A DNA stretch of 64,000 nt from positions 222,501-286,500 of the forward strand of contig JACEFZ010028312.1 in assembly GCA_014155875.1 (NCBI GenBank), in the 5' to 3' direction. The notes under the pieces were generated by a model, which was not told the origin of the DNA, ran no database searches, and saw only the letters and a list, made by a program, of their open reading frames with translations. The DNA comes from Cepaea nemoralis. Its lineage: Eukaryota; Mollusca; Gastropoda; Stylommatophora; Helicidae. Shown here piece by piece: positions 6,252 through 59,944 of the stretch (positions are counted from its first letter, which is position 1; every line of letters starts with the position of its first letter). The position numbers were made by a program, and so were the translations under genes.

Positions 6252-7040
6252 GTCATCATCATCAAGTGTCGTGCCGACTGGCGTAGGCGTTCATGACTCT
6301 CCACAGATCTCTGTCTTTGGTTTTCTGGATCAACTCTGCCGTTGATATTCCTCCATGTCACTGTCGCAATCCATCCAGCATCATTTTTCGTGGTCTGCCT
6401 CTGCCTCTCTTCCCCTCAGTCTTTCCAGTTGTCACGATGTTCTCCATCGCCTCTCTTCTCATCACATTACCAAAAAAAGCAGTTTGTCTCTTTCTTAATG
6501 TTGTGTATAATGTTCTAGTTTCGCCAGCCTCTTTAAGGCATTCGTCGTTAGTTACTTTGGCAGTCCAAGGAATTCGCAACATTCGTCTAAGGAACTACAT
6601 CTCTGTTGCTTCCAGTCTCTTCCTAATTTGTTCATTTATATTCCAAAATTTACAGCCGTACAGCAAAACAGGTTCTATATAGCACCTCAGCACTTTCTTT
6701 CTTACATTCAATCATAGCGATTCATAGCATAAGATATTCTTCATTTTTTGAAATGCAGCATTTGCTTGCCCTATTCTGCTCTTGATCTCTGTTGTGCATC
6801 TTCAATCTGATGTTATAAATGTCCCTAGATATTTAAACCTATCCACTTGGTGAAGAATTTTCCCTTCTATCTCTATTTCACATTTGGGTGTCACCTGTTT
6901 CTTTGGTACCACCATTGTCGCTGTTTTCTTGATATTCAAGGAGAGTTACTACAAAGTACAATGTCCAACAATTGTTGTAGATCTGTTGCATTATCCGTTA
7001 TCAATACTGTGTCATCTGCATAGTCAAAGGCTAGGGAAAG
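6252..7040 (-). mobile_element. RTE/BovB-like LINE fragment (RT palm to 3' end)
   Basis: The minus strand shows the RT motif DYADDTVLITDN near 7020. At 6582-6358 it reads the conserved C-terminus (LRIPWTAKVTNDE, FFGNVMRREAMENIVTTGKT, GRGRPRKMMLDG). The element ends with a (GAT)n tail at 6252-6264. Frameshifts separate the blocks. The C-terminal FGH-MRR / GRGRPR-LDG layout matches the RTE/BovB group whose endonuclease is known as craniofacial development protein 2. Confidence 0.85.
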
Positions 7041-9303: not shown

Positions 9304-9309
9304 TACCAG
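9304..9309. repeat. Target-site duplication, left copy (TACCAG)
   Basis: TACCAG directly precedes the palindromic element and recurs at 23506-23511, directly after its end. Confidence 0.9.
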
Positions 9310-9321
9310 AGTAGTTATATA

Positions 9322-9480
9322 TGATGCCTACTCCCCCCAAAATTGTGGTGCCGCGTGGTGCGCACCACGTGGTGCTCGTGGTGCTGGGACCACATGGTGC
9401 TGTGTGGTGTCTAGTGGTGGGAGTATGTGGTGCGGTGGTGCTGGGTGTATGTGGTGCCTGTGGAGTGTGTCTTTGGCTTG
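9322..9480. repeat. GTGGTG-rich subterminal block with small palindromes
   Basis: A dense array of GTGGTGC words with self-complementary pieces (GTGGTGCGCACCAC and CACCACGTGGTG). The mirror copy is at 23335-23493. Its position just inside the terminus would suit protein binding, but that is inference. Confidence 0.7.
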
Positions 9481-9897
9481 TTAAGCTCGTTGTTTTTGGC
9501 GGGTAAAATTTTTTTAAAAAAGAAAAAAGTCTGATCTAATGAGCTGGAGGCTCTTCATGTGTGTGCGCGTGTATCTGTGGCCAGGGTGGAGTGGAAGGAG
9601 CCGGCGTAAATAGTAAGCGCAAAGAAGGTGGTGTTGTCCCCCATGTAGTTGTCACCTGGCCGGTCAGCGCCCGAGTGACCACGAGTCCGGTCATGGGTCT
9701 AACGAGTAGCGGTGTATCTACTGGTGCTAACAACGGACAACCGACTGTGTCTTTAAAATGTCAAAACTTACAAAAACACACATAGTTGTACATGCACAAG
9801 GTGGGACAAAAAAATCAATACGCATCTTCATAACAACTAATCCAGGGTATTATCGTCGTCGTAATGAACTAGGTGGATTATTAATAATGCTTTATAT

Positions 9898-10003
9898 AAA
9901 CCGGGCGGGGTGGTCGGAGCCAGCGCGGGCGACGAACGCGGGGGCGACCACGACCGGGTGGTCGCGTGGGCGCGGGTTCGAACCCTCGAGCCGCTCCGGG
10001 TGT
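9898..10003 (+). other. GC-rich tRNA-like island with box B
   Basis: A sharply GC-rich block in AT-rich surroundings contains GCGGGTTCGAACCC, close to a Pol III box B. The T-stem pairs poorly and no convincing acceptor stem is present, so I do not call a tRNA gene. The mirror copy is at 22815-22920. Confidence 0.4.
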
Positions 10004-10261
10004 CGTATGAAAGTTGTAATAAGTAAAAATGTAAATAATTCGGATGTATGAGCTATAGTGGTTCGTAGTGGTTTATACATTATCATCATATAAATTACAC
10101 CGCTTCAAATGAAAACCTCAGCAAAGAAAAGATGGCCGCTAGTACGTGTTGTAGTGGTATGGCTTAGTGTTATTTGATGTTAAGGGGTGGGTGAGTGAAA
10201 GCGTATCTCTATAAATGCTTCCAAACAATATCAGCATACAGTGTCAGATCGTTAAAGAGAA

Positions 10262-10507
10262 ACCCTAAAGAAACATGTCAAGATGGCCGTCGATGTCCTC
10301 CGTAGGTGCCGGGTTCGAGTCCCAGTTGGGTGATCTAGTGGTAGAAGAAATATTGACTTAGTAACTTGTTACTTAGTTGTGATGGCGATAGCTGGTGGTA
10401 GTAACAGGCTATGTGTAGCAAAGGAGAGGTGGTATGCAGGGTGAGGAGTATGTATAGGGGGTACCCCAGACGAGATGACAGGTTCGAATCTCGGGTGCTG
10501 TGCTACA
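10262..10507 (+). other. Two further box B-like motifs (tRNA-like sequences)
   Basis: GCCGGGTTCGAGTCCCAG lies near 10308-10325 and ACAGGTTCGAATCTCGG near 10481-10497. The second is bracketed by GTAGCA near 10417 and TGCTAC near 10502, which could pair as an acceptor-like stem. Anticodon arms are not convincing. The mirror region is 22311-22556. Confidence 0.35.
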
Positions 10508-11162
10508 GGTAAGGGTAATAGGCGTCAGCGTGTGGGGTGTCTAGCTGGTCATACGGGTTATGATTAGAGACAGTCTGTCTCTCCGTGTCGCTGTGTCCAC
10601 AAGTCCAAGGGAAAAACAGGCATCCGACTTCACAGCTTAACTTAACATAACAAATTGGAGAACATAAGATACCCATACACGTCGCCAGCTGTTACAAAAT
10701 CAATAATAGCCAGATGTATATATGAATAATCCTGGGGGGATTATCGCCGTCGATAGAAAGGGATTGGGAAAGCAATAATACTCGTCATATCGTCAGGGAG
10801 GGGATTATAACATATGTCGTCTAAGCCCAAGGTATATCTCCTGTAATATAAGGTGGTCGGAAAACCAATATCACTAGGCCTCGATTCTTCTCATAATTGC
10901 GACTAGTGGCTTATAGATATAACCATTATTGCAGACGCAGCTGTGTGCAGACTAATCTACCAGGTCACGTGGTCTAGGCCATATCGACAAAAACGGGGTA
11001 TAAATGTTAAGGAATAGACGCTGTACGAAGCACTCTCTGCCAGCTCTCTGATCCTGATACATCAAGGGAAACTGACAGAACAACCTTTGCAGTCGGTGAG
11101 TATGATGTCTCGTTGGTAAACACTGCGCATGTGTGTGCATGTGTATGTCTGTATGTATATAG

Positions 11163-11163
<1 letters not shown>

Positions 11164-11202
<39 letters not shown>
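11164..11202. repeat. (GT)n microsatellite, left arm
   Basis: It is shorter than its mirror copy (CA)n at 21600-21652. This is one of the length differences that show the arms diverged after formation. Confidence 0.95.
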
Positions 11203-11204
<2 letters not shown>

Positions 11205-11757
11205 GTGTGTGTTTATGTCTATGTGTGCGTGTGTACATGTGAATAAGTGTAACGATGGTAGATATAACCAAAGGGTAATAGAGCGTGGGCTACTCTAGTG
11301 ATATGAAGATAACAAAAGAACCTCTCTCTTTCACATGGAAACGGCCGCTGTGATCATACTGTACTAAGGTGATGTTTTGCTGTTATACTCAAGTTGGGTC
11401 TATTTACCCTCTACCGGTTAACTTCACTCAGCCATATCATGTGGAGTTTCATATTCACTGTTAACAAACATGAGCCGGCAGTATAATTTCTAGACCAACC
11501 AATGTGTCAAACTATACTGACTTTGTCTTTTTTTTCCGTTAGATCAAATATGTCTTCACTTCATATTGCCACAAATATTAACTTTATATACATCACTGTG
11601 CTCATGGAGACTCAGTATGATATCATTCATAGATCATAAAAAATCTTCACAATTAAAAAAGTATTGCTGGTCACTAAAAGTTTTCTTGTTCTTGTTGTTT
11701 TTCCAGGTGTACGTTGTCAACGTGTTGAAAGAACCCATATTCTTGACTTCAATCTAC

Positions 11758-11765
11758 TATAAAAA
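11758..11765 (+). promoter_or_regulatory. Candidate TATA box of the left zinc-finger gene
   Basis: TATAAAAA lies 93-100 bp upstream of the likely start at 11858. A splice-acceptor-like pyrimidine tract ending in CCAG at 11706 lies just before it. The mirror copy is at 21045-21052. Confidence 0.35.
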
Positions 11766-11842
11766 TCAAAAGGAGGGCTGAAAATATAAAGACCTTGTAC
11801 CGAATTACTACTATCAACCTATAAACCTCAACTTTTACGGTA

Positions 11843-12289
11843 TTGTCAAACAGAATTATGTCGACTCAGCAAAAAGAAATCCACTTATGTGTCACATGTG
11901 GGAAAAGTTTCACAGAAAAGCGCAATCTGCTTCGTCATCTTTGCACAGTTCACAGCACTGAAACGCATGCATGTCACCTATGTGGCAAGCTATTCAACAG
12001 AAAAGACAACCTACAAAAACACAGACGAACATACCACAAGACACACACTTCATCAACAACTATGGACACTAAACCTTCAAACCCTGAACCCAGTCTACCA
12101 TCACTTTCATCACGCAAAAGGAGGACACCCTCGAACGCATATACCAATAAAAAACGTAGACACACTACTGATCAAATGGTAGCAAAGGAAGCGGACACCC
12201 AACAAACATATAGGGACAACTGGACAGCCCTTAGGACTTACTGCAAGGCGCTGTCGATCATGTTACCCAAGAATATAGTGGTATTATAA
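11843..12289 (+). CDS. Two-finger C2H2 zinc-finger protein, left-arm copy
   Basis: 148 aa from ATG 11843. An in-frame ATG at 11858 gives 143 aa starting MSTQQKEIHL and may be the true start. Two classical C2H2 fingers are visible: CVTCGKSF..LLRHLCTVH (about residues 17-38) and CHLCGKLF..LQKHRRTYH (about 44-65). A Ser/Pro/Thr-rich basic stretch follows (SSRKRR, NKKRRHT), probably a nuclear localisation signal, then a tail with no motif I know. Sequence-specific nucleic-acid binding is the family expectation; the target is unknown. The gene points toward the palindrome centre. The mirror copy lies at 20521-20967. Confidence 0.75.
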   Translation: MSNRIMSTQQKEIHLCVTCGKSFTEKRNLLRHLCTVHSTETHACHLCGKLFNRKDNLQKHRRTYHKTHTSSTTMDTKPSNPEPSLPSLSSRKRRTPSNAYTNKKRRHTTDQMVAKEADTQQTYRDNWTALRTYCKALSIMLPKNIVVL

Positions 12290-12898
12290 GAAAGCGCCGA
12301 CCAACACCACCTAGTGAGCATAGTAAATGTATAAACCTAACAATTTTACCTCCTCTGTCTTATAAGAAGTAGTATTCTGATATATTTGTATGATAGCCCT
12401 GAGTCACCCCAACTAATGTGCATGTCTTCATTCTGGCGTGGATCTGTTTAGCGTGCCTCCTATGCAAACGATGACAGAAGAGGGTTAGTGTGTGGAGATA
12501 CACCGGCTCACGGCTCTAGGAGCACCTGTGAGGATCTAGCGTCATGTCGTCTGCAGGCTGTACTACAATAACATTTCAACAAAGATGAAATAATCACGCT
12601 AAGCCACAGTAGTATCGCGGAGTGCCCCTTCAACTATAATCGCCAACACGAAAACTCGGAACCATCTCCAACCAACAGAGAGTGTTAACCACCACAGACA
12701 ACCTTATCTTTCAGTAAATCCACACTGGTCGATGGGTAGTAAGCAGCTACCTATAAAGAAAGAGAGGCAATATAATTACAGATAGGTCGTCAATACCTGA
12801 ATAAGTCTCAATATGAAGAAGCTTAGGGTGGATGTGAGGAGTCTTTTTATATAAATATACATAGGTGTTGTTATTTCTTCGCAGGTTGTATCCCATAG

Positions 12899-13093
12899 GG
12901 GTGGCTACAGAGTGGTATATCCATCGAAGGAACATCACTGGCGCAAACACCCCAGGCCACCACTGATGTCACTAGTGGTAAATCGCTGTGTCCTAGTGCG
13001 AAAAGAGTGAATAGCATTGCACAAGCTACCACAGTATTTGACCAAACACAATTGTCTGTCCCCCTAACAACCATTTGTATGATCCTAGTGTGA
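12899..13093 (+). CDS. Possible exon or gene fragment, left arm
   Basis: An open plus-strand frame without a start codon reads GTSLAQTPQATTDVTSGKSL and ends at TGA 13091-13093. A good splice-acceptor-like sequence (TTATTTCTTCGCAG) ends near 12884 and a second AG near 12910. Thr/Ser/Ala-rich composition makes it coding-like. The mirror copy is at 19718-19912. Confidence 0.25.
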   Translation, partial: GWLQSGISIEGTSLAQTPQATTDVTSGKSLCPSAKRVNSIAQATTVFDQTQLSVPLTTICMILV

Positions 13094-13115
13094 CGTCAAC
13101 AATCTGCTCAAGACC

Positions 13116-13607
13116 TTGTTATTATTCGTGAAGAACAGACTAAGCAATCTTTATAAGTTCGGTGACACTGGTGTCAATTCCACAAGAAAAAACATGTCTA
13201 CGCAACCAACAGAACTTCATCTGACTGCCATAAGACCGGTTGTCACTAAACAATATACACTGAACAAAGAAAGAGTGGTCAAAAACAATATCAACAGAGA
13301 TGCACACCCGACTGGTTTACTCGTTAAACGGACTAACTCAGGTCAATGTGTTACTATAACTTTCGACAGTACAAGTCACTATCAGTCGTTTCGAACCCGT
13401 ATGGTTAGTTATTACAAGCACCAGTGCATTGAATCCAGACAAGACCTGAACGGGGTACCCGTGGAAGACCTGTTTTCAACACCCCTGGTTAAGATACATA
13501 TGTATCACACGAAGATGAAACTTTTCGCCCAGGGAAAGATTGACAATATTAATTCTTGGTTAAAAATAGACTTTATCGAACTTGGAAACTTCGATACAGA
13601 CGAATAG
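13116..13607 (+). CDS. Unrecognised element-encoded protein, left-arm copy
   Basis: 163 aa from ATG 13116. An internal in-frame ATG at 13194 gives 137 aa starting MSTQPTELHL, strikingly like the zinc-finger gene's MSTQQKEIHL, and I favour it. The chain is soluble-looking with no signal peptide or membrane segment. The C-terminal half has a YHTKMKLFAQGKIDNINSWL motif with a DF shortly after; similar strings occur in proteins of unknown function in invertebrate mobile elements (from memory, unverified). Codon use looks protein-coding and both arms keep the frame intact. The mirror copy is at 19204-19695. Confidence 0.6.
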   Translation: MLLFVKNRLSNLYKFGDTGVNSTRKNMSTQPTELHLTAIRPVVTKQYTLNKERVVKNNINRDAHPTGLLVKRTNSGQCVTITFDSTSHYQSFRTRMVSYYKHQCIESRQDLNGVPVEDLFSTPLVKIHMYHTKMKLFAQGKIDNINSWLKIDFIELGNFDTDE

Positions 13608-13691
13608 ACACACAAAGCAACCTTCCTGGGTCAAAAAGGAGAAGAAACCCACAATAAGGCACAAATTCCAAGTTAGTATATTTGAGACTAT

Positions 13692-13874
13692 AAGCCTGTA
13701 TTTCCACAACTAATCAAAAATAGACAAAACTTTGACGCTTTTATCAAAACAGTACACGAACACGACGTTCTTACCTACGCTATGCAACAACGTCCAAATA
13801 CCAAATACACTACAGAGATGATTCCAGCTATATGTTTTTATCTCTATCATATCCCAGAATTCCGACTTGTTTAA
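13692..13874 (+). CDS. Coding-like continuation downstream of the unknown gene
   Basis: In the same frame as the 13116 gene, but after three stops, the sequence reads QNFDAFIKTVHEHDVLTYAM and later TEMIPAICFYLYHIPEF. It ends at TAA 13872-13874. It is either a separate exon or a decayed C-terminus. AATAAA overlaps the stop at 13873-13878. The mirror is at 18937-19119 with the same stops. Confidence 0.45.
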   Translation, partial: KPVFPQLIKNRQNFDAFIKTVHEHDVLTYAMQQRPNTKYTTEMIPAICFYLYHIPEFRLV

Positions 13875-13878
13875 TAAA
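13873..13878 (+). terminator. Candidate polyadenylation signal AATAAA
   Basis: It overlaps the stop of the frame at 13692-13874. The gene-free AT-rich satellite begins about 230 bp further on. Confidence 0.45.
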
Positions 13879-14109
13879 TAACCACCCTTTTATGACCCAC
13901 GTTAGGCATCACTGTGCATGATCATACTAGTTATAACATCCCATATTTAGCCAACCATTTTGTATACTGACATTATGCTTGCTCATTTTTTGTAAAATGT
14001 ACTGGAAATATTGTAAAATAAACAGTTTTATGTATTATAAGTGCGTTCACATGTTTGTTTTTAGTGTTGACGGTACATATGGGTGTCATGTGGTGAGCGG
14101 GTGTTACAT

Positions 14110-15056
14110 GTTGATGGCCAGGTAAAGAAATATCGCAACCAAACTTATAAAAATTAGGAAAATTTGTTAACCTAATGAGAAAAATATTGACCAAGTAAAG
14201 AAAAATTTACACAAAATTTACACAAATTAGGAAAATGTTACCCATATTAGGAAAAATATTGGCCAACGTATGAAATATCTCGAACAAATTTACAAAGAGT
14301 AGGAAAACATGTCGACCAAAGTAGGAAAATTGTTCGTCAAATGTGAAAAATATTGGGCAAGTAGGAAATCATGTTAACCAAAGGTGAAAACTATTGACCA
14401 AGTAAAGAAACTTCTCGTCCAAACTCATAAAAAGTAGGAAAATTTGTTAGCCAAATGGGAAAAATGGTGGCCAAATACAGAAATATCTCGACCAAACTAA
14501 TAAACATTAGGAAAATGTGCTAGCCAAAGGTGAAAAATATTGGTCAAGTAAAGAAATATCTCAGCCGATTTATAACAAGTAAGAAAAACATGCTAGTAAA
14601 ATCAAGAAATATGTCGACCGAAGTAATACAATAGGCAAAACGATGGACAAACTTATAAAGATGTCGACCGTTATAAAAATATGTGTTACCCAAATTAGGA
14701 AAAATATTGCCCAAGTGAAGAAATATCTCAACCATACTTATGAAAAGGAGGAAAATGTGTTAACCAAATGGGAAAAATATTGGCGAAGTGAAGAAATATC
14801 TCATCCATTCTTATAAAAATTAGGAAAATGTGTTAATCTAAGGAGAAAAAATATTGACCAAGTAAAGACAAATTTACACCAAACTTATGAAAAATAGGAA
14901 AATTTGTTAACCAAAGGGGAATAAATATGGGCTAAACTAAATATGTTGACCCAAGTAAGAAAATATGTTAGCCAAATGGGGGAAAATGTTGGCCAAAACA
15001 TGAAACATCTTAACCAAACTTATAAATATCTCGTGTAAACTTTTAAATAAGTAGGG
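14110..15056. repeat. AT-rich degenerate satellite, left arm
   Basis: About 80-bp units built from GTTAACCAAA..GGAAAAATATTG, CCAAGTAAAGAAATATCTCG and ACCAAACTTATAAAAA words. Unit divergence is high. Small open frames inside are repeat artefacts. The mirror array at 17476-18700 is 280 bp longer. Confidence 0.9.
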
Positions 15057-15223
15057 GGAAAAAAATATTGCTTCTGTAGTTATGTCAAAAGTATCTTGAA
15101 CTTTTATCTGAACAGACATTTCACAAGACATAATCATCAACGTCAACACTTTCCCTCTTTTTACATTACCGAAAACTTCAACTTACCATTCCAACGTATC
15201 TGCTAAAGACGCACTTATACATA

Positions 15224-15712
15224 CTAATCACCCATCTCTTCACACTCTTGGTTGTTGTTTTCTAACATAAAATATCTCTGTCTTTCGTAGCTGTCTTCCC
15301 AACTTTTCCATGTCACATCACCAAGATACTCCAAACATTCGTTGCACATGAGTTCTAATGAAACAGTCATAACAACATTTATGGTAATGCAATATGTGGC
15401 TCCACCTGGGATAGTTTCAATATCATCTGAGTATTCGTCAGCAAAGAGCTATTACCCATGGCTGACATCTTCAACTTTCTATACCACAATGACTTCTACA
15501 CTAACCTTCCATTGTTCCATCTTTCAACAATACAAAGGGTGGTCTCGAAGTTTAGCTAACATAACATTTTGTACTTTATCCACCTCTTTCACACGTTGTA
15601 ATTTCACAGCTGCAATAACGACAAGTCTGCAACCAACACTGTCTGTTATGAAGTCGACCATTCTTAAAACCACGTCTGTCTTAATGAGCCCTTGAATACT
15701 CTCTACCAGATC
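15224..15712 (-). pseudogene. Decayed reading frame, left arm
   Basis: This is the mirror of 16820-17308. On minus, one frame reads DFITDSVGCRLVVIAAVKLQ and, after four stops, ADEYSDDIETIPGGATYCI and LGDVTWKSWEDSYERQRYFM. It could be a lost element gene; no family is recognised. Confidence 0.3.
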
Positions 15713-15894
15713 TTATAACCGACTTTCAACTTTTCATACCAAATAACATTAACACTCTTTTTGATTACAGAACAACCGATTTTCTGCTGACTAGGCAGGT
15801 TTCTCAATCTAATGGAGATAAATCACCTGTCCTCCTAACATACTAGGCACTATTCTAGACAACGAATATGGTCATCAACCAGCACCCCTAAGAA

Positions 15895-16022
15895 GAACTT
15901 GAAAACAGCAACAGAGATTGGGTTCCTGAGACGAATTCCTTGGACTACCAGAGTAACTAACGCTGATCGCCTAAAAGAGCCTACAAAACATAGAGCCTTA
16001 TATACATCAACACAACAAACTC
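15895..16022 (+). mobile_element. RTE LINE scrap captured in the left arm
   Basis: It reads EIGFLRRIPWTTRVTNADRL followed by degenerate sequence equivalent to the TRTLYTT segment, matching the RTE C-terminus seen at 6358-6582. The mirror is at 16510-16637. Confidence 0.65.
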
Positions 16023-16029
16023 TTTCTTA

Positions 16030-16113
16030 CTAACCCTAACTATACATCATCTAACCCTAACACTAACCCTAACCCCTAACCCTAATTTTAACCCCTAACC
16101 CTAACCCTAACTA
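16030..16113. repeat. Telomere-like (CCCTAA)n block, left of centre
   Basis: Roughly ten imperfect CCCTAA/CCCCTAA units. The mirror TTAGGG block is at 16419-16502. Confidence 0.85.
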
Positions 16114-16218
16114 TACAGCAAACACAACAAACTCTGACATAGATACAAACCAGTGTCAGAAATGTGAAAAGTTAAAATTTAATAAAAATTTAAAACTAAT
16201 AAATCGCAATTTTATTGC

Positions 16219-16313
16219 CCGCTTCACTTAATATCCGCTTCACTTAATATACAGATATAGCCTAAGTATAGGTGTAAGTTAGGTATAGGACGTATATCGA
16301 GCTTACATCTTGC
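16219..16313. other. Central spacer of the palindrome
   Basis: 95 bp not mirrored between the arms. It contains a perfect tandem pair of CCGCTTCACTTAATAT (16219-16234, 16235-16250), then unique sequence with GTATAGGTGTAAGTTAGGTA. Confidence 0.9.
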
Positions 16314-16418
16314 GCAATAAAATTGCGATTTATTAGTTTTAAATTTTTATTAAATTTTAACTTTTCACATTTCTGACACTGGTTTGTATCTATGTCAGAG
16401 TTTGTTGTGTTTGCTGTA

Positions 16419-16502
16419 TAGTTAGGGTTAGGGTTAGGGGTTAAAATTAGGGTTAGGGGTTAGGGTTAGTGTTAGGGTTAGATGATGTATAGTTAGGGTT
16501 AG
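16419..16502. repeat. Telomere-like (TTAGGG)n block, right of centre
   Basis: Imperfect TTAGGG units running away from the centre, the mirror of 16030-16113. Confidence 0.85.
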
Positions 16503-16509
16503 TAAGAAA

Positions 16510-16637
16510 GAGTTTGTTGTGTTGATGTATATAAGGCTCTATGTTTTGTAGGCTCTTTTAGGCGATCAGCGTTAGTTACTCTGGTAGTCCAAGGAATTCG
16601 TCTCAGGAACCCAATCTCTGTTGCTGTTTTCAAGTTC
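16510..16637 (-). mobile_element. RTE LINE scrap, right-arm copy
   Basis: Mirror of 15895-16022. Confidence 0.6.
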
Positions 16638-16819
16638 TTCTTAGGGGTGCTGGTTGATGACCATATTCGTTGTCTAGAATAGTGCCTAGTATGTTAGGAG
16701 GACAGGTGATTTATCTCCATTAGATTGAGAAACCTGCCTAGTCAGCAGAAAATCGTTTGTTCTGTAATCAAAAAGAGTGTTAATGTTATTTGGTATGAAA
16801 AGTTGAAAGTCGGTTATAA

Positions 16820-17308
16820 GATCTGGTAGAGAGTATTCAAGGGCTCATTAAGACAGACGTGGTTTTAAGAATGGTCGACTTCATAACAGACAGTGTTGGT
16901 TGCAGACTTGTCGTTATTGCAGCTGTGAAATTACAACGTGTGAAAGAGGTGGATAAAGTACAAAATGTTATGTTAGCTAAACTTCGAGACCACCCTTTGT
17001 ATTGTTGAAAGATGGAACAATGGAAGGTTAGTGTAGAAGTCATTGTGGTATAGAAAGTTGAAGATGTCAGCCATGGGTAATAGCTCTTTGCTGACGAATA
17101 CTCAGATGATATTGAAACTATCCCAGGTGGAGCCACATATTGCATTACCATAAATGTTGTTATGACTGTTTCATTAGAACTCATGTGCAACGAATGTTTG
17201 GAGTATCTTGGTGATGTGACATGGAAAAGTTGGGAAGACAGCTACGAAAGACAGAGATATTTTATGTTAGAAAACAACAACCAAGAGTGTGAAGAGATGG
17301 GTGATTAG
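16820..17308 (+). pseudogene. Decayed reading frame, right arm
   Basis: One frame, open between stops at 16817 and 17308 except for four internal stops. Coding-like blocks include ADEYSDDIETIPGG and LGDVTWKSWEDSYERQRYFM. The family is unknown. It is the mirror of 15224-15712. Confidence 0.3.
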
Positions 17309-17475
17309 TATGTATAAGTGCGTCTTTAGCAGATACGTTGGAATGGTAAGTTGAAGTTTTCGGTAATGTAAAAAGAGGGAAAGTGTTGACGTTGATGATT
17401 ATGTCTTGTGAAATGTCTGTTCAGATAAAAGTTCAAGATACTTTTGACATAACTACAGAAGCAATATTTTTTCCC

Positions 17476-18700
17476 CCTACTTATTTAAAAGTTTACACGA
17501 GATATTTATAAGTTTGGTTAAGATGTTTCATGTTTTGGCCAACATTTTCCCCCATTTGGCTAACATATTTTCTTACTTGGGTCAACATATTTAGTTTAGC
17601 CCATATTTATTCCCCTTTGGTTAACAAATTTTCCTATTTTTCATAAGTTTGGTGTAAATTTGTCTTTACTTGGTCAATATTTTTTCTCCTTAGATTAACA
17701 CATTTTCCTAATTTTTATAAGAATGGATGAGATATTTCTTCACTTCGCCAATATTTTTCCCATTTGGTTAACACATTTTCCTCCTTTTCATAAGTATGGT
17801 TGAGATATTTCTTCACTTGGGCAATATTTTTCCTAATTTGGGTAACACATATTTTTATAACGGTCGACATCTTTATAAGTTTGTCCATCGTTTTGCCTAT
17901 TGTATTACTTCGGTCGACATATTTCTTGATTTTACTAGCATGTTTTTCTTACTTGTTATAAATCGGCTGAGATATTTCTTTACTTGACCAATATTTTTCA
18001 CCTTTGGCTAGCACATTTTCCTAATGTTTATTAGTTTGGTCGAGATATTTCTGTATTTGGCCACCATTTTTCCCATTTGGCTAACAAATTTTCCTACTTT
18101 TTATGAGTTTGGACGAGAAGTTTCTTTACTTGGTCAATAGTTTTCACCTTTGGTTAACATGATTTCCTACTTGCCCAATATTTTTCACATTTGACGAACA
18201 ATTTTCCTACTTTGGTCGACATGTTTTCCTACTCTTTGTAAATTTGTTCGAGATATTTCATACGTTGGCCAATATTTTTCCTAATATGGGTAACATTTTC
18301 CTAATTTGTGTAAATTTTGTGTAAATTTTTCTTTACTTGGTCAATATTTTTCTCATTAGGTTAACAAATTTTCCTACTTTTTATGAGTTTGGACGAGAAG
18401 TTTCTTTACTTGGTCAATAGTTTTCACCTTTGGTTAACATGATTTCCTACTTGCCCAATATTTTTCACATTTGACGAACAATTTTCCTACTTTGGTCGAC
18501 ATGTTTTCCTACTCTTTGTAAATTTGTTCGAGATATTTCATACGTTGGCCAATATTTTTCCTAATATGGGTAACATTTTCCTAATTTGTGTAAATTTTGT
18601 GTAAATTTTTCTTTACTTGGTCAATATTTTTCTCATTAGGTTAACAAATTTTCCTAATTTTTATAAGTTTGGTTGCGATATTTCTTTACCTGGCCATCAA
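17476..18700. repeat. AT-rich degenerate satellite, right arm
   Basis: Mirror of 14110-15056 plus one 280-bp duplication. Confidence 0.9.
18082..18641. repeat. 280-bp perfect tandem duplication, right arm only
   Basis: 18082-18361 and 18362-18641 are copies of each other. The left arm has a single copy near 14170-14450. Confidence 0.93.
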
Positions 18701-18936
18701 CATGTAACACCCGCTCACCACATGACACCCATATGTACCGTCAACACTAAAAACAAACATGTGAACGCACTTATAATACATAAAACTGTTTATTTTACAA
18801 TATTTCCAGTACATTTTACAAAAAATGAGCAAGCATAATGTCAGTATACAAAATGGTTGGCTAAATATGGGATGTTATAACTAGTATGATCATGCACAGT
18901 GATGCCTAACGTGGGTCATAAAAGGGTGGTTATTTA

Positions 18937-19119
18937 TTAAACAAGTCGGAATTCTGGGATATGATAGAGATAAAAACATATAGCTGGAATCATCTCTGTA
19001 GTGTATTTGGTATTTGGACGTTGTTGCATAGCGTAGGTAAGAACGTCGTGTTCGTGTACTGTTTTGATAAAAGCGTCAAAGTTTTGTCTATTTTTGATTA
19101 GTTGTGGAAATACAGGCTT
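18937..19119 (-). CDS. Coding-like continuation, right-arm copy
   Basis: Mirror of 13692-13874, including the stops that separate it from the gene at 19204-19695. Confidence 0.45.
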   Translation of the reverse strand, partial: KPVFPQLIKNRQNFDAFIKTVHEHDVLTYAMQQRPNTKYTTEMIPAICFYLYHIPEFRLV

Positions 19120-19203
19120 ATAGTCTCAAATATACTAACTTGGAATTTGTGCCTTATTGTGGGTTTCTTCTCCTTTTTGACCCAGGAAGGTTGCTTTGTG
19201 TGT

Positions 19204-19695
19204 CTATTCGTCTGTATCGAAGTTTCCAAGTTCGATAAAGTCTATTTTTAACCAAGAATTAATATTGTCAATCTTTCCCTGGGCGAAAAGTTTCATCTTC
19301 GTGTGATACATATGTATCTTAACCAGGGGTGTTGAAAACAGGTCTTCCACGGGTACCCCGTTCAGGTCTTGTCTGGATTCAATGCACTGGTGCTTGTAAT
19401 AACTAACCATACGGGTTCGAAACGACTGATAGTGACTTGTACTGTCGAAAGTTATAGTAACACATTGACCTGAGTTAGTCCGTTTAACGAGTAAACCAGT
19501 CGGGTGTGCATCTCTGTTGATATTGTTTTTGACCACTCTTTCTTTGTTCAGTGTATATTGTTTAGTGACAACCGGTCTTATGGCAGTCAGATGAAGTTCT
19601 GTTGGTTGCGTAGACATGTTTTTTCTTGTGGAATTGACACCAGTGTCACCGAACTTATAAAGATTGCTTAGTCTGTTCTTCACGAATAATAACAA
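19204..19695 (-). CDS. Unrecognised element-encoded protein, right-arm copy
   Basis: 163 aa (or 137 aa from the MSTQPTELHL methionine), identical in sequence to the left-arm protein. It points toward the centre, so the two copies converge. Identity despite SNPs elsewhere in the arms suggests either recent origin or constraint. Confidence 0.6.
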   Translation of the reverse strand: MLLFVKNRLSNLYKFGDTGVNSTRKNMSTQPTELHLTAIRPVVTKQYTLNKERVVKNNINRDAHPTGLLVKRTNSGQCVTITFDSTSHYQSFRTRMVSYYKHQCIESRQDLNGVPVEDLFSTPLVKIHMYHTKMKLFAQGKIDNINSWLKIDFIELGNFDTDE

Positions 19696-20520
19696 GGTCT
19701 TGAGCAGATTGTTGACGTCACACTAGGATCATACAAATGGTTGTTAGGGGGACAGACAATTGTGTTTGGTCAAATACTGTGGTAGCTTGTGCAATGCTAT
19801 TCACTCTTTTCGCACTAGGACACAGCGATTTACCACTAGTGACATCAGTGGTGGCCTGGGGTGTTTGCGCCAGTGATGTTCCTTCGATGGATATACCACT
19901 CTGTAGCCACCCCTATGGGATACAACCTGCGAAGAAATAACAACACCTATGTATATTTATATAAAAAGACTCCTCACATCCACCCTAAGCTTCTTCATAT
20001 TGAGACTTATTCAGGTATTGACGACCTATCTGTAATTATATTGCCTCTCTTTCTTTATAGGTAGCTGCTTACTACCCATCGACCAGTGTGGATTTACTGA
20101 AAGATAAGGTTGTCTGTGGTGGTTAACACTCTCTGTTGGTTGGAGATGGTTCCGAGTTTTCGTGTTGGCGATTATAGTTGAAGGGCACTCCGCGATACTA
20201 CTGTGGCTTAGCGTGATTATTTCATCTTTGTTGAAATGTTATTGTAGTACAGCCTGCAGACGACATGACGCTAGATCCTCACAGGTGCTCCTAGAGCCGT
20301 GAGCCGGTGTATCTCCACACACTAACCCTCTTCTGTCATCGTTTGCATAGGAGGCACGCTAAACAGATCCACGCCAGAATGAAGACATGCACATTAGTTG
20401 GGGTGACTCAGGGCTATCATACAAATATATCAGAATACTACTTCTTATAAGACCGAGGAGGTAAAATTGTTAGGTTTATACATTTACTATGCTCACTAGG
20501 TGGTGTTGGTCGGCGCTTTC

Positions 20521-20967
20521 TTATAATACCACTATATTCTTGGGTAACATGATCGACAGCGCCTTGCAGTAAGTCCTAAGGGCTGTCCAGTTGTCCCTAT
20601 ATGTTTGTTGGGTGTCCGCTTCCTTTGCTACCATTTGATCAGTAGTGTGTCTACGTTTTTTATTGGTATATGCGTTCGAGGGTGTCCTCCTTTTGCGTGA
20701 TGAAAGTGATGGTAGACTGGGTTCAGGGTTTGAAGGTTTAGTGTCCATAGTTGTTGATGAAGTGTGTGTCTTGTGGTATGTTCGTCTGTGTTTTTGTAGG
20801 TTGTCTTTTCTGTTGAATAGCTTGCCACATAGGTGACATGCATGCGTTTCAGTGCTGTGAACTGTGCAAAGATGACGAAGCAGATTGCGCTTTTCTGTGA
20901 AACTTTTCCCACATGTGACACATAAGTGGATTTCTTTTTGCTGAGTCGACATAATTCTGTTTGACAA
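20521..20967 (-). CDS. Two-finger C2H2 zinc-finger protein, right-arm copy
   Basis: 148 aa, same sequence as the left-arm copy: two C2H2 fingers near residues 17-38 and 44-65, then a basic Ser/Pro-rich stretch. A mirrored TATA-like box lies at 21045-21052. Two identical inverted copies could form one double-stranded transcript if read through, but no such transcript is evident from sequence. Confidence 0.75.
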   Translation of the reverse strand: MSNRIMSTQQKEIHLCVTCGKSFTEKRNLLRHLCTVHSTETHACHLCGKLFNRKDNLQKHRRTYHKTHTSSTTMDTKPSNPEPSLPSLSSRKRRTPSNAYTNKKRRHTTDQMVAKEADTQQTYRDNWTALRTYCKALSIMLPKNIVVL

Positions 20968-21599
20968 TACCGTAAAAGTTGAGGTTTATAGGTTGATAGT
21001 AGTAATTCGGTACAAGGTCTTTATATTTTCAGCCCTCCTTTTGATTTTTATAGTAGATTGAAGTCAAGAATATGGGTTCTGTCAACACGTTGACAACGTA
21101 CACCTGGAAAAACAACAAGAACAAGAAAACTTTTAGTGACCAGCAATACTTTTTTAATTGTGAAGATTTTTTATGATCTATGAATGATATCATACTGAGT
21201 CTCCATGAGCACAGTGATGTATATAAAGTTAATATTTGTGGCAATATGAAGTGAAGACATATTTGATCTAACGGGAAAAAAAGACAAAGTCAGTATAGTT
21301 TGACACATTGGTTGGTCTAGAAATTATACTGCCGGCTCATGTTTGTTAACAGTGAATATGAAACTCCACATGATATGGCTGAGTGAAGTTAACCGGTAGA
21401 GGGTAAATAGACCCAACTTGAGTATAACAGCAAAACATCACCTTAGTACAGTATGATCACAGCGGCCGTTTCCATGTGAAAGAGAGAGGTTCTTTTGTTA
21501 TCTTCATATCACTAGAGTAGCCCACGCTCTATTACCCTTTGGTTATATCTACCATCGTTACACTTATTCACATGTACACACGCACACATAGACATAAAC

Positions 21600-21605
21600 A
21601 CACAC

Positions 21606-21652
<47 letters not shown>
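21600..21652. repeat. (CA)n microsatellite, right arm
   Basis: Mirror of 11164-11202, but longer. Confidence 0.95.
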
Positions 21653-21655
<3 letters not shown>

Positions 21656-22310
21656 CTATATACATACAGACATACACATGCACACACATGCGCAGTGTTT
21701 ACCAACGAGACATCATACTCACCGACTGCAAAGGTTGTTCTGTCAGTTTCCCTTGATGTATCAGGATCTGAGAGCTGGCAGAGAGTGCTTCGTACAGCGT
21801 CTATTCCTTAACATTTATACCCCGTTTTTGTCGATATGGCCTAGACCACGTGACCTGGTAGATTAGTCTGCACACAGCTGCGTCTGCAATAATGGTTATA
21901 TCTATAAGCCACTAGTCGCAATTATGAGAAGAATCGAGGCCTAGTGATATTGGTTTTCCGACCACCTTATATTACAGGAGATATACCTTGGGCTTAGACG
22001 ACATATGTTATAATCCCCTCCCTGACGATATGACGAGTATTATTGCTTTCCCAACCCCTTTCTATCGACGGCGATAATCCTCCCAGGATTATTCATATAT
22101 ACATCTGGCTATTATTGATTTTGTAACAGCTGGCGACGTGTATGGGTATCTTATGTTCTCCAATTTGTTATGTTAAGTTAAGCTGTGAAGTCGGATGCCT
22201 GTTTTTCCCTTGGACTTGTGGACACAGCGACACGGAGAGACAGACTGTCCCTAATCATAACCCGTATGACCAGCTAGACACCCCACACGCTGACGCCTAT
22301 TACCCTTACC

Positions 22311-22556
22311 TGTAGCACAGCACCCGAGATTCGAACCTGTCATCTCGTCTGGGGTACCCCCTATACATACTCCTCACCCTGCATACCACCTTTCCTTTGC
22401 TACACATAGCCTGTTACTACCACCAGCTATCGCCATCACAACTAAGTAACAAGTTACTAAGTCAATATTTCTTCTACCACTAGATCACCCAACTGGGACT
22501 CGAACCCGGCACCTATGGAGGACATCGACGGCCATCTTGACATGTTTCTTTAAGGT
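22311..22556 (-). other. Box B-like motifs, right-arm copy
   Basis: Mirror of 10262-10507. Confidence 0.35.
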
Positions 22557-22814
22557 TTCTCTTTAACGATCTGACACTGTATGCTGATATTGTTTGGAAG
22601 CATTTATAGAGATACGCTTTCACTCACCCACCCCTTAACATCAAATAACACTAAGCCATACCACTACAACACGTACTAGCGGCCATCTTTTCTTTGCTGA
22701 GGTTTTCATTTGAAGCGGTGTAATTTATATGATGATAATGTATAAACCACTACGAACCACTATAGCTCATACATCCGAATTATTTACATTTTTACTTATT
22801 ACAACTTTCATACG

Positions 22815-22920
22815 ACACCCGGAGCGGCTCGAGGGTTCGAACCCGCGCCCACGCGACCACCCGGTCGTGGTCGCCCCCGCGTTCGTCGCCCGCGCTGGCT
22901 CCGACCACCCCGCCCGGTTT
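22815..22920 (-). other. GC-rich tRNA-like island, right-arm copy
   Basis: Mirror of 9898-10003, with GGGTTCGAACCCGCG near 22833. Confidence 0.4.
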
Positions 22921-23505
22921 ATATAAAGCATTATTAATAATCCACCTAGTTCATTACGACGACGATAATACCCTGGATTAGTTGTTATGAAGATGCGTAT
23001 TGATTTTTTGTCCCATATTGTGCATGTACAACTATGTGTGTTTTGTAAGTTTTGACATTTTAAAGACACAGTCGGTTGTCCGTTGTTAGCACCAGTAGAT
23101 ACACCGCTACTCGTTAGACCCATGACCGGACTCGTGGTCACTCGGGCGCTGACCGGCCAGGTGACAACTACATGGGGGACAGCACCACCTTCTTTGCGCT
23201 TACTATTTACGCCGGCTCCTTCCACTCCACCCTGGCCACAGATACACACGCACACACATGAAGAGCCTCCAGTTCATTAGATCAGACTTTTTTCTTTTTT
23301 AAAAAATTTTACCCGCCAAAAACAACGAGCTTAACAACCCAAAGACACACTCCACAGGCACCACATACACCCAGCACCACCGCACCACATACTCCCACCA
23401 CTAGACACCACACAGCACCATGTGGTCCCAGCACCACGAGCACCACGTGGTGCGCACCACGCGGCACCACAATTTTGGGGGGAGTAGGCATCATATATAA
23501 CTACT

Positions 23506-23511
23506 TACCAG
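23506..23511. repeat. Target-site duplication, right copy (TACCAG)
   Basis: It immediately follows the ACTACT end of the palindrome. Confidence 0.9.
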
Positions 23512-32440: not shown

Positions 32441-32960
32441 AATAAATAGATGAAAAACATACTGACCAATAAAAAGATGTCAATTGCAACGAAAAAAAGA
32501 GTGTTGAGATGCTACATAGAACCTGTACTTTTATATGGATGTGAAGCTTGGACAATGAGCAGTCAGGCTGAAAAACATCTGATGGCTATAGAAATGTGGT
32601 TTCTGAGGAAAATGCAAAGAATACCATGGACAGCCAGAAAGACTAATGAACAAGTCCTTCAAGAAACAAATGAAGATCGTAAACTGATTAGAGGCATTAG
32701 ACGTAGACAGTCACAACTTTTTGGGCATGTTATGAGAAGAAATGATTTGGAGAACTTGGTGACAACTGGTAAGATCGAAGGGAACAGACCAAGGGGAAGA
32801 CCTAGAAGCAAGTACCTGGATGGCTTGGCCTTGTGGTATGGTCGAGACAGAAACACGGAGCTGATCCACGACTCTGGTGATCGAGTGAGATGGCAGAACA
32901 TGACCGCCCACGCTTACCGGCATGGCACATGATGGATGGATGAATAAATAAATAAATAAA
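32441..32960 (+). mobile_element. RTE-like LINE, 3' end, 5'-truncated
   Basis: A well preserved 160-aa C-terminus (32450-32932): [60 protein letters not shown], then [13 protein letters not shown], ending HAYRHGT. The 3' UTR is almost absent and the tail is (GATG)n(AATA)n, typical of RTE elements. It is nearly identical to 36473-36787 and the minus copy at 55574-56030. Confidence 0.9.
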
Positions 32961-34589: not shown

Positions 34590-35045
34590 GCTTAATATAA
34601 TATTTCTTAATATAATTACCGATGAAATATTTGATGGATGCAGTAAAGTTGCTTCAACTATGAAGTTGAAAAGTATCTTATGCAATAAGTCACTATCATT
34701 GAATGTAAGAAAGAGAGTGTTGACATGCTATATAGAATCAGTTTTGCTGTATGGCATCTTGGAATGTAAATGAACAAATTAGGAAGAACATGGAAGCAAT
34801 AGAGATGTGGTTCCGGAGACGAGTTTTGCAAATTTCTTGGGCTGCCAGAATAACTAACAAAGATTACCTGAAAGAGACTAATGAAACTAGAATATTATAT
34901 ACAACAATAAGGGACAATCGGCTTTCTTTGTCATGTGATGAGGAGAGAGGCATTGGAGAACATCGTGATAAGTGGAAAGATCGAGGGGTACAGGCGCAGA
35001 GGCAGACAAAGAGAAATTATGCTAGATGGATTGAGACAGTGGCCA
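34590..35045 (+). mobile_element. RTE-like LINE fragment, plus part of an inverted pair
   Basis: Reads VRKRVLTCYIES, MEAIEMWFRRRVLQISWAAR and ITNKDYLKETNETRILYTTI, then frameshifts through the zinc/GRP region. It meets an opposite-strand fragment at 35046. Confidence 0.8.
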
Positions 35046-37215: not shown

Positions 37216-37326
37216 GTGTATGTAAAAGGGGAGGGGAATGACATTTTGGAAAGGGAGGGGTGACATTCTGGACATATGGTGAAATTGTGCATGGGCCAAA
37301 AAAGGTTGAGAACCACTGTGCAAGAG

Positions 37327-38095
37327 GGAAAGATGATAGGCAGACATGCACATACTAGAGGGAAAGGTGGATATTAATCACACATACACTAGTGGACAAG
37401 ATATAAGGCAGACATGTACATATTAGAGGGAAAGGTGGAAGTTAATCACACGTATACTAGAGGGAAAAGTGGAAGTTAATCACACATATACTAGAGTGAA
37501 AGGTGGAAGTTAATCACACATAAACTATAGGACAAGATATAAGACAGACATGTACATATTAGAGGGAAAAGTGGAAGTTAATCACACATATACTAGAGGG
37601 AAAAGTGGAAGTTAATCACACATATACTAGAGGGAAAAGTGGAAGTTAATCACACATATACTAGAGTGAAAGGTGGAAGTTAATCACACATATACTAGAG
37701 TGAAAGGTGGAAGTTAATCACACATATACTAGAGTGAAAGGTGGAAGTTAATCACACATAAACTATAGGACAAGATATAAGACAGACATGTACATATTAG
37801 AGGGAAAGGTGGAAGTTAATCACACATATACTAGAGGGAAAAGTGGAAGTTAATCACACATATACTAGAGTGAAAGGTGGAAGTTAATCACACATAAACT
37901 ATAGGACAAGATATAAGACAGACATGTACATATTAGAGGGAAAGGTGGAAGTTAATCACACATATACTAGAGGGAAAAGTGGAAGTTAATCACACATATA
38001 CTAGAGGGAAAAGTGGAAGTTAATCACACATATACTAGAGGACAAGATATAAGGCAGACATGTACATGTTAGCGGGAAAGGGGAAGTTAAATACA
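37327..38095. repeat. 34-bp minisatellite with higher-order units
   Basis: Units GGGAAAAGTGGAAGTTAATC plus ACACATATACTAGA. A longer variant carrying GGACAAGATATAAGACAGAC recurs every three to six units. Flank sequence at 36090-36153 is of the same kind, so the hAT element lies within the array. Confidence 0.93.
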
Positions 38096-38103
38096 CACAT
38101 ATA

Positions 38104-43789: not shown

Positions 43790-44490
43790 TGGTGTTCATG
43801 ATAGTTTTGGATTGCAACAATAACTAAGGATTGTGTACACATTCAACAATTGTTTTCCTCACAGTTTTAGTTTGTGACAATAACTAAGGATGATGTACAC
43901 ATTCAACAAGTGTTTTCCTTATAGTTTTAGTTTGTGACAATAACTAAGGATTGTGTACACATTCAATAATTGTTTTCCTCACAGTTTTAGTTTGTGACAA
44001 TAACCAAGGATGATGTACACATTCAACAAGTGTTTTCCTTATAGTTTTAGTTTGTGACAATAACTAAGGATTGTGTACACATTCAACAATTGTTTTCCTC
44101 ACAGTTTTAGTTTGTGACAATAACTAAGGATGATGTACACATTCAACAAGTGTTTTCCTTATAGTTTTAGTTTGTGACAATAACTAAGGATTGTGTACAC
44201 ATTCAACAATTGTTTTCCTCACAGTTTTAGTTTGTGACAATAACTAAGGATGATGTACACATTCAACAAGTGTTTTCCTTATAGTTTTAGGCTGTGACAA
44301 TAACTAAGGATTGTGTGCACATTCAACAAGTATTTTCCTCAGTTTTAGGCTGGAACAATATCTAAGGATGGTGTTCACATTCAACAAGTATTTTCCTCAT
44401 AGTTTTAAGTTGTAACAATAACTAAGGATGGTGTACACATTCAACAAGTGTTTTCCTCATAGTTTTAGGTTGTGTCAATAATCTAGCATC
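43790..44490. repeat. 60-bp minisatellite with alternating A/B units
   Basis: Eleven to twelve copies of exactly 60 bp with CAGTTTTAGTTTGTGACAAT and AACTAAGGAT cores. In the middle, units alternate CTCACAG..ATGATG..CAAGT and CTTATAG..TTGTG..CAATT, so the real repeat is a 120-bp dimer. Confidence 0.95.
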
Positions 44491-44589
44491 ATGCACAGGT
44501 GCACCAAGTCTTATTTTTCTATTTTAAAAAAAAGAGCAGTGTGTGGGAATAAGTCTCTCAAATTGGGAGACAAGGATTCACAACCTCAG

Positions 44590-45400
44590 CATCATTATGA
44601 TCATCACATGCTCTGCCAACTGGCAGAGGCATTCATGCCTCGCCACAGATCTCAGTCCTCGGTGTTCTGGATCAACTCTGCAGATGGTATTCCTCCATAT
44701 CATCATCTTAGTCCATCAAGCATCATTTCTCTGTCTGCCTCTGCTACAACTAATCTTTCCAGTGGTCACTATATTTTCCAATGCCTCTCTTCTCATTACA
44801 TGACCAGAGCACGCTGTTTGTCTCTTTCTTATAGTTGTACTGAATACTTTCAATAGCCTCTTCCAGGCAAGTGTCATTAGTTACTCAGGAGACAGTCAAA
44901 GGTATTCACATCAGTCATCCCAACACTGCTGCCTCAAAGCTATTTCCTAATTCCTAATTTGTTCATTCACATTCCATGATTCACTGTCATACAGCAAAAT
45001 AGGTTCTATATAACATTTCAGTACTCTCTTTCTGACATTAAATGACAATTACATATTTTATAGTGTTTTCATTTTCTTAAATGCAGCATTTTTCTTGACC
45101 TAATCTGCTCTAAATCTTCCGTCTGATGTTATGATTGCCCATGAGTATTTAAATGTATCAACTTGGTTAAACATATTCCCTCCCATTGTTATATTACATT
45201 TTGGTGTTATACCTGTCTTTGATATAATCACTGGTTTCTGTTTTCTTGGTCTTCAGGGAAAGTCCTATTTTGCACTCTCTATTTCTTTACTGTCCACAAT
45301 TTTTAGATCTTTTGCTTCTTCAGCTATCAATTTCGTGTCATCTGCTCAGCATAGATTACATATATTATGACTTGTACTCATGTCCTCTTTTTTTATCTTC
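44590..45400 (-). mobile_element. RTE-like LINE fragment (RT palm to 3' end)
   Basis: Collinear with 6252-7040: the GGTGTTCTGGATCAACTCTG block near 44662, the AGGTTCTATATAACATTTCA block near 45000 and an eroded YADD region near 45345. It starts at an (ATC)-type tail. Confidence 0.8.
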
Positions 45401-52780: not shown

Positions 52781-52782
52781 CA

Positions 52783-53185: not shown

Positions 53186-53189
53186 TGTT

Positions 53190-54889: not shown

Positions 54890-55249
54890 CACTTTACCAG
54901 AAGTGCAGGAGTGACTAAGCATTGGGTCATGACCCTGCTATTATTAGACTAAAGGTATATATCACTGGTACACATATGTGTAATATATCTAGCTCTATGA
55001 CCAACTTACTTGCAACACTATTTTAAAAGTCTCTTTTCTTTTTGGGCAGTTTCACATCTCATAACTCTGTGAACCTCACTACACCTGCACCCCTAACTAA
55101 TTGAAAGGGACACATCCAAGCCAACAGCCCTGCTATTATAGAAAAAAAAAACATCCCATCATTCCTTTTGGGGTGAAAATGCCTAAACCACCAGCCAAAT
55201 ACTTTCAGTGCCATTCAACAACAATACAAACGGCACCCTTACTCTTATT
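54890..55249. other. No recognisable feature (intron)
   Basis: No motif. Confidence 0.4.
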
Positions 55250-55786: not shown

Positions 55787-55796
55787 TTTACAATTT

Positions 55797-59935: not shown

Positions 59936-59944
59936 ACTTGACAT

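What the first reader, a model, noticed from the sequence alone, without database searches (positions are those of the whole stretch)
9310..23505. A 14.2 kb palindromic element with Polinton-type ends but no Polinton core genes
Seen: AGTAGT..ACTACT ends, 6-bp TACCAG duplication and two near-identical arms of about 7 kb. Known: Maverick/Polinton elements have AG..CT ends, 6-bp duplications and protein-primed replication. Inference: this could be a snap-back (hairpin-copied) derivative like the large palindromes formed by protein-primed linear genomes, or a parasite that borrows the enzymes of full elements. It keeps only a zinc-finger gene and an unknown gene, doubled.
Basis: partly seen in the sequence, partly recalled or inferred. 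Interest (0 to 1): 0.9.

Follow-up and report, generated by a model that had tools for sequence, protein, structure and literature searches.

The report
Palindromic satellite with Maverick-type ends
A 14-kb piece of mobile DNA in an animal-like genome is almost a perfect mirror image of itself, has the ends and target duplication of the virus-like Maverick/Polinton elements but none of their recognised enzymes, and looks like a defective copy that was doubled head to head before it was inserted, which would matter because such defective 'snap-back' genomes are known from viruses and would here be preserved in a chromosome.

Summary
Observation confirmed. 9310-23505 is a 14,196-bp palindrome: AGTAGT..ACTACT ends, TACCAG on both sides, arms of about 6.9 kb differing by 17 substitutions and a few indels, and a 95-nt asymmetric loop. 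Taking it out with one TACCAG restores an open frame weakly matching LINE reverse transcriptases across the junction, so the palindrome existed before one clean integration. AGTAGT//ACTACT with a 6-bp duplication is the commonest terminus reported for vertebrate Mavericks (PMC8097293). No Maverick core gene was recognised. Each arm carries a C2H2 zinc-finger ORF (143 aa) and an ORF without known relatives (137 aa), both pointing inward. New here: the inner arm holds a degraded LINE fragment also found at four other places in the window, and 16 of 17 substitutions lie in the outer 44% of the arm. Best reading: a non-autonomous snap-back derivative of one end of a Polinton-type element, joined to host DNA, doubled during replication, and integrated by an enzyme supplied in trans. 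Parentage, doubling and helper are inferred. No full-length relative was found: the host-genome search did not complete (13 attempts), other collections gave none. Not a Polinton by membership; it works like a satellite or defective genome of one. New variant of a known kind.

The parts
9304..9309 (.). target-site duplication TACCAG, left copy
23506..23511 (.). target-site duplication TACCAG, right copy
9310..16218 (+). left arm of the palindrome, terminus AGTAGTTATATATGATGCC
16314..23505 (-). right arm of the palindrome, same terminus inverted
16219..16313 (.). 95-nt unpaired centre (loop); holds a 16-bp tandem duplication
9345..9457 (+). subterminal cluster of GTGGTG(C) repeats; mirrored at 23358-23470
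   Evidence: 8 GTGGTGC in 9345-9457 (7 on +, 1 on -); 10 GTGGTG on both strands in the first 200 bp, at most 4 in 2000 mononucleotide shuffles
11858..12289 (+). ORF1, 143 aa, two C2H2 zinc fingers; preceded by TATAAATG at 10999, donor-like GTGAGTA at 11096 and acceptor-like TTTTTCCAG at 11698
   Evidence: the promoter and splice sites are motif matches only
20521..20952 (-). ORF1, right-arm copy; same translation (no arm difference falls in the ORF)
13194..13607 (+). ORF2, 137 aa, no recognised relative
19204..19617 (-). ORF2, right-arm copy; same translation
13686..13871 (+). 62-codon open piece after ORF2, possibly coding; no family match
   Evidence: the one viral-contig match was rejected as chance
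14115..15064 (+). AT-rich minisatellite region, period about 73 bp; the right-arm copy is 280 bp longer
15863..16018 (+). degraded LINE reverse-transcriptase fragment shared with four other places in the window; mirrored in the right arm
16030..16112 (+). degenerate CTAACC (telomere-like) microsatellite; mirrored at 16420-16502

Best explanation
It is a non-autonomous, palindromic derivative of a Polinton/Maverick-type element. During extrachromosomal replication one end of a parent element (the outer 4-5 kb: terminus, GTGGTG repeats, two inward-facing genes) became joined to host DNA with an old LINE fragment. [quoted passage not shown] Having two proper ends, it was integrated once as a unit by a Polinton-type integrase supplied by another element, duplicating TACCAG. 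Shown: the palindrome, ends, duplication, rejoined frame, absence of recognisable core genes, and LINE homology near the centre of both arms. Inferred: parentage, snap-back copying, the order of host-DNA capture and doubling, and the helper.
For: Termini and 6-bp duplication match the commonest vertebrate Maverick end type (PMC8097293); PMC10045372 also gives 6 bp as characteristic of Polinton, while the other 6-bp eukaryotic DNA-transposon groups seen in its passages, IS3EU and GingerRoot, end in TA..TA or TG..CA. The same duplication on both sides and the rejoined open frame mean that both ends entered together, so the palindrome is older than the insertion. Arms differ by 17 substitutions in 6,909 bp and meet in a 95-nt loop. 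At 14.2 kb the element fits the 12.7-24.6 kb range of intact vertebrate Mavericks, whose modules generally point inward and most of which carry accessory regions flanking the core. The fragment at 15863-16018 matches four other places in the window by blastn or tblastn (best blastn E 2.4e-14): repeat sequence of host type lies inside both arms. Snap-back genomes, symmetric or with a loop, are a major class of defective genomes in AAV (PMC8235507 passages).
Against: No full-length element with these ends was found: 0 matches of the 19-mer in viral contigs, 2 chance-level hits in genome contigs, no relatives of ORF1 or ORF2, and the host genome was unreachable. The arms differ in a skewed way (16 of 17 substitutions in the outer 44%), which plain snap-back followed by even decay does not predict. 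Vertebrate Maverick inverted repeats span 46-1,447 bp, far below 6.9 kb. The LINE fragment could have entered the element at another time, for example as an ordinary insertion before the arms were doubled. The Maverick termini cited are from vertebrates only, and the host here is not identified.
Confidence: 0.55

Rival explanations
1. A foldback-type non-autonomous DNA transposon of another, perhaps undescribed, superfamily that makes 6-bp duplications and happens to begin with AGTAGT. Its arms grew by unequal exchange of internal repeats, not by snap-back.
For: The arms hold a long minisatellite whose copy number differs between arms and a subterminal repeat cluster; long internally repetitive inverted repeats are stated for Galileo, resembling Foldback, in an abstract listed (PMC3573991). 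No Polinton gene was recognised.
Against: Six defined terminal bases and a 6-bp duplication both fit the commonest vertebrate Maverick end type; the other 6-bp groups seen in PMC10045372 have other ends. Repeat growth does not explain single-copy genes and a LINE fragment mirrored at near identity.
Confidence: 0.2
2. A stable palindromic satellite lineage of Polintons: the doubled form is the normal genome, propagates in many copies with its own zinc-finger and ORF2 proteins, and is kept uniform by repeated hairpin replication or conversion from the centre.
For: Both genes are open and identical in both arms. Differences avoid the inner arm: the longest run without a substitution is 3,420 bp, reached in 18 of 100,000 random placements, as expected if the centre is repeatedly homogenised.
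Against: Only one copy was seen; copy number in the host could not be counted. Conversion within the chromosome could give the same skew.
Confidence: 0.15
3. Two oppositely oriented full elements recombined after insertion and lost what lay between them.
For: It would give identical ends in mirror orientation (as seen).
Against: The flanks would then be expected to carry two unrelated duplications; here both are TACCAG and the flanks rejoin in an open frame.
Confidence: 0.02
4. Assembly artefact, for example a read that passed through a hairpin adapter.
For: Inverted duplications are a known artefact of long-read assembly (recalled).
Against: An artefact would mirror the flank too; the mirror stops at the element's ends and the flanks differ but rejoin. 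The arms also differ by 17 substitutions and a 280-bp indel.
Confidence: 0.03

Closest known systems
Maverick/Polinton elements (vertebrate Mavericks, PMC8097293; passages and section 7 seen)
   Same: 5'-(AGT)2//(ACT)2-3' ends, 6-bp target duplication, inverted termini, total size within 12.7-24.6 kb, genes facing inward
   Different: no recognised polymerase, integrase, ATPase, protease or capsid gene; inverted repeats of 6.9 kb instead of 46-1,447 bp; nearly the whole element is one palindrome
AAV snap-back defective genomes (PMC8235507; abstract and passages seen)
   Same: self-complementary molecules made from one part of a linear genome, doubled around a turn that may include a loop; need a helper
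   Different: AAV is a single-stranded parvovirus, not protein-primed (recalled); integration with a 6-bp duplication is not part of that picture
Adenovirus 12 SYREC symmetric recombinants (recalled; one search found no usable paper)
   Same: viral end on both sides of a palindrome with host DNA in the middle, in a protein-primed linear genome
   Different: packaged virus DNA, not a chromosomal insertion; the comparison rests on memory
Foldback / Galileo elements (search listings only: PMC3573991, PMC4168063)
   Same: long, internally repetitive inverted repeats
   Different: Galileo is placed in the P superfamily (listed abstracts); its duplication length (7 bp) is recalled

Membership tests
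Maverick/Polinton | AG-type termini, commonly (AGT)2//(ACT)2 | tested here: met
   motif from PMC8097293
Maverick/Polinton | 6-bp target-site duplication | tested here: met
   TACCAG both sides
[quoted passage not shown]
   longest open frame kept for the element is 172 codons stop to stop; no Pfam match
Maverick/Polinton | retroviral-type integrase | tested here: not met
   no Pfam match in the element frames scanned
Maverick/Polinton | ATPase, protease, major and minor capsid genes | tested here: not met
   no frame above 172 codons and no Pfam match; Pfam may miss divergent capsid proteins
Maverick/Polinton | inverted repeats of tens to about 1,450 bp | tested here: not met
   about 6.9 kb against 46-1,447 bp
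non-autonomous Polinton derivative | shares ends with a full-length element in the same genome | not testable with these tools
   The genome search unanswered in 13 tries
IS3EU / GingerRoot | 6-bp duplication with TA..TA (or TG..CA) termini | tested here: not met
   termini are AG..CT; criterion from PMC10045372
Foldback-type element | long inverted repeats built of tandem repeats | tested here: inconclusive
   the minisatellite fills under 1 kb of the 6.9-kb left arm
Snap-back defective genome | one genome end doubled around a turn, made by replication | tested here: inconclusive
   anatomy fits; the process cannot be seen

The most novel reading that the evidence does not exclude
A self-propagating palindromic satellite of animal Polintons: it keeps only the ends and two genes, is copied by the full element's polymerase through repeated snap-back (which homogenises the centre), and interferes with its helper, by competing for replication and integration and because convergent transcription of the two arms would give long hairpin RNA against the shared sequences.
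Probability: 0.2. Interest if true: 0.85.

Novelty: new variant of a known kind. Interest (0 to 1): 0.6.

Why it matters
Mavericks encode a protein-primed polymerase and capsid genes, but their viral particles had not been observed as of 2021 (start of the abstract of PMC8097293, listed; section 7). A palindrome made before integration is a product expected from strand displacement and snap-back, so it would be an indirect trace of extrachromosomal replication of such an element in an animal. It would also be a chromosomal counterpart of viral defective genomes, and copies of it could be counted and dated. My five searches for Polinton or Maverick with palindrome, foldback, non-autonomous or defective-interfering terms (20 of 21, 20 of 37, 11 of 11, 9 of 9 and 15 of 220 papers listed) showed, in titles and abstract starts, no such element; bodies were not read for this, except passages of PMC6431247, and most subscription papers are not held.

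Tried and rejected
Protein relatives: none for ORF1 or ORF2 in the large protein set (ORF2: 2 candidates; ORF1: 4 candidates; none at E 0.01) or viral contigs. How many eukaryotic proteins that set holds is not known to me, so this is weak. PDB sequence search with ORF2 gave E 0.52 or worse. AlphaFold2 on ORF2 alone gave mean pLDDT 34, so no fold search was run.

The 62-aa piece 13686-13871 hit L003. L003 encodes microvirus-type proteins by my reading of its ORFs, and the match lies where its longest ORF runs in another frame: rejected as chance. My impression that this piece belongs to the N-terminal part of a Polinton polymerase is recalled only and has no support from any call.

tRNA-like B boxes: GGTTCGANNC has 13 matches in the window against 0.51 expected (two self-complementary sites count twice), three sites clustered at 9975-10490 and mirrored. 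ARAGORN (bacterial code) and Rfam found no RNA gene; the only weak Rfam match in the arm lies on a GT microsatellite. Not pursued.

The terminal 19-mer in genome contigs: 2 hits in bacterial records, about what 257 billion bases give by chance (my arithmetic); not inspected.

Pfam over the window: one search kept 108 stop-to-stop frames of at least 85 aa after dropping low-complexity ones; 77 of the 108 were scanned at E 0.001. The 31 left out were my choice: ORF1/ORF2 frames (scanned as ATG ORFs) and mirrored copies, alternative frames in the element (11790-12179 and 21521-21808 scanned later, E 0.047 or worse), and frames in repeat arrays or overlapping others outside the element, not all of them of low complexity. 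Of the frames of 40-84 aa in the arm only a few were scanned.

Pfam did not recognise the rejoined flank frame; PDB sequences did, weakly.
Full report
What is there. 9310-23505 (14,196 bp) is a palindrome with exact boundaries. It starts AGTAGTTATATATGATGCC and ends with the reverse complement, and is flanked on both sides by TACCAG. The arms align end to end with 17 substitutions, five single-base indels, an 8-bp (GT)n indel and a 280-bp minisatellite difference, and meet at a 95-nt unpaired centre, 16219-16313. Chance is not an issue: among 17 AGTAGT sites in the window, 12 pairs have an inverted 12-bp partner downstream and 1 of the 12 has matching 6-bp flanks.

The insertion. Removing the element and one TACCAG gives an open frame across the junction. 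All five PDB sequences that match this frame at E up to 1 are reverse transcriptases, four of them LINE-1 ORF2, at E 0.0075-0.021 and over residues 8-63, which span the junction. Pfam gave nothing for it, so the match is weak but consistent. This is one integration event with both ends used together. It speaks against head-to-head fusion of two resident copies, and it means the palindrome existed before it was inserted. It also argues against an assembly artefact, since a false mirror would not stop exactly at the element's ends.

Which family the ends point to. A survey of vertebrate Mavericks gives 5'-(AGT)2//(ACT)2-3' as the commonest end motif, with 6-bp duplications, sizes of 12,723-24,620 bp, inverted repeats of 46-1,447 bp, gene modules generally facing the centre, and accessory regions flanking the core in most elements (PMC8097293; passages, section 7). 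The element agrees in ends, duplication, size and gene direction and disagrees in repeat length and gene content. IS3EU and GingerRoot also make 6-bp duplications but end in TA..TA or, occasionally for GingerRoot, TG..CA (PMC10045372, passages).

Genes. Per arm there is ORF1 (11858-12289, 143 aa, two C2H2 fingers, zf-C2H2 E 6.4e-10) and ORF2 (13194-13607, 137 aa, no Pfam match; two PHROG matches no better than E 0.06). No arm difference falls inside either ORF. In 500 dinucleotide shuffles of 9310-14110, 21 had an ATG ORF of at least 137 aa and none had two, so the pair is unlikely by chance. ORF1 has a TATAAATG box at 10999 and splice-like sites at 11096 and 11698 (motif matches only). The two proteins begin alike, MSTQ..E.HL, which I cannot explain. 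No core Polinton gene was recognised: the longest open frame is 172 codons, and Pfam matched nothing of that kind in the frames scanned.

Termini. Ten GTGGTG words on both strands crowd the first 200 bp, against a mean of 0.37 and a maximum of 4 in 2000 mononucleotide shuffles. I suggest, without a test, that they bind the zinc-finger protein or the helper's enzymes.

The centre. The inner arm differs in kind from the outer arm: a minisatellite region (14115-15064), then sequence holding a degraded LINE reverse-transcriptase fragment (15863-16018) and a CTAACC microsatellite. The fragment matches 6499-6625, 34780-34928 and 44854-44932 by blastn, and 6490-6651, 34760-34912 and 32549-32686 by tblastn: four places in all. 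When the LINE at 55001-58403 was used as query, 5 of its 10 other matches in the window ended at its position 2,867-2,876; the arm fragment itself was not among those matches. It therefore shows no sign of a LINE 3' end, which speaks against a recent ordinary LINE insertion. The plainest reading is host DNA carried in the element before the arms were doubled. This recalls adenovirus symmetric recombinants (recalled only; one search found no usable paper). AAV snap-back genomes, symmetric or with a loop, are documented (PMC8235507, passages).

A result against the simple model. The 17 substitutions are not spread evenly: 16 lie in the outer 44% of the arm (binomial tail 2e-5, cut chosen after seeing the data), the longest run without one, 3,420 bp, was reached in 18 of 100,000 random placements, and a Kolmogorov-Smirnov test gives p 5e-5 (all). 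Snap-back followed by even decay does not predict this. Repeated hairpin replication or conversion from the centre would, as would exchange of one outer arm with another element, or conversion in the chromosome.

What could not be done. The host genome search did not complete (13 identical requests, the last being). The terminal 19-mer had no match in viral contigs and 2 chance-level matches in genome contigs. Neither ORF had relatives. The host is not identified; a frame matching a nuclear-receptor ligand-binding domain points to an animal.

Verdict. The Polinton connection rests on ends, duplication, size and gene direction, and is likely (my estimate 0.75-0.8). That the palindrome preceded insertion is well supported. 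The snap-back origin and the helper are inference. It is not filed as a Polinton, because core features were tested and not met; it works like a satellite or defective genome of one.

Noticed in passing
58489-58920 (-): Open frame matching a nuclear hormone receptor ligand-binding domain (Pfam E 3.3e-9; best PDB match estrogen receptor, E 2e-9), probably an exon of a host gene. A second of the 77 scanned ORFs also matched this family and was not identified.
   Followed up: partly
55001-58403 (-): LINE with endonuclease and reverse-transcriptase frames (Pfam); 10 other matching stretches in the window, 5 of them ending at the same 3' point.
   Followed up: partly
52781-53187: A 407-bp near-perfect palindrome (96.6%) beginning CACGTG; no matching flanks were evident.
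   Followed up: partly
9975-10490, mirrored 22328-22843: Three sites (one self-complementary) matching the tRNA-like B-box GGTTCGANNC within 520 bp; 13 matches in the window against 0.51 expected; no tRNA or Rfam gene found.
   Followed up: partly
13686-13871 (+): A 62-codon open piece after ORF2 that looks protein-like but has no Pfam or PHROG match.
   Followed up: partly
15227-15448 (-) and 15527-15712 (-): Two protein-like open pieces in the inner arm on the opposite strand; Pfam no better than E 0.037. Possibly a decayed captured gene.
   Followed up: partly
5114-56611: A second pair with AG start, 10-bp inverted termini and identical 6-bp flanks (ATAGAA) turned up in the looser test; 51 kb apart and probably chance.
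   Followed up: no
43792-44525, 37323-38103, 59015-60457, 1956-2546: Long tandem repeat arrays; the 59-60 kb array is open in several frames.
   Followed up: no
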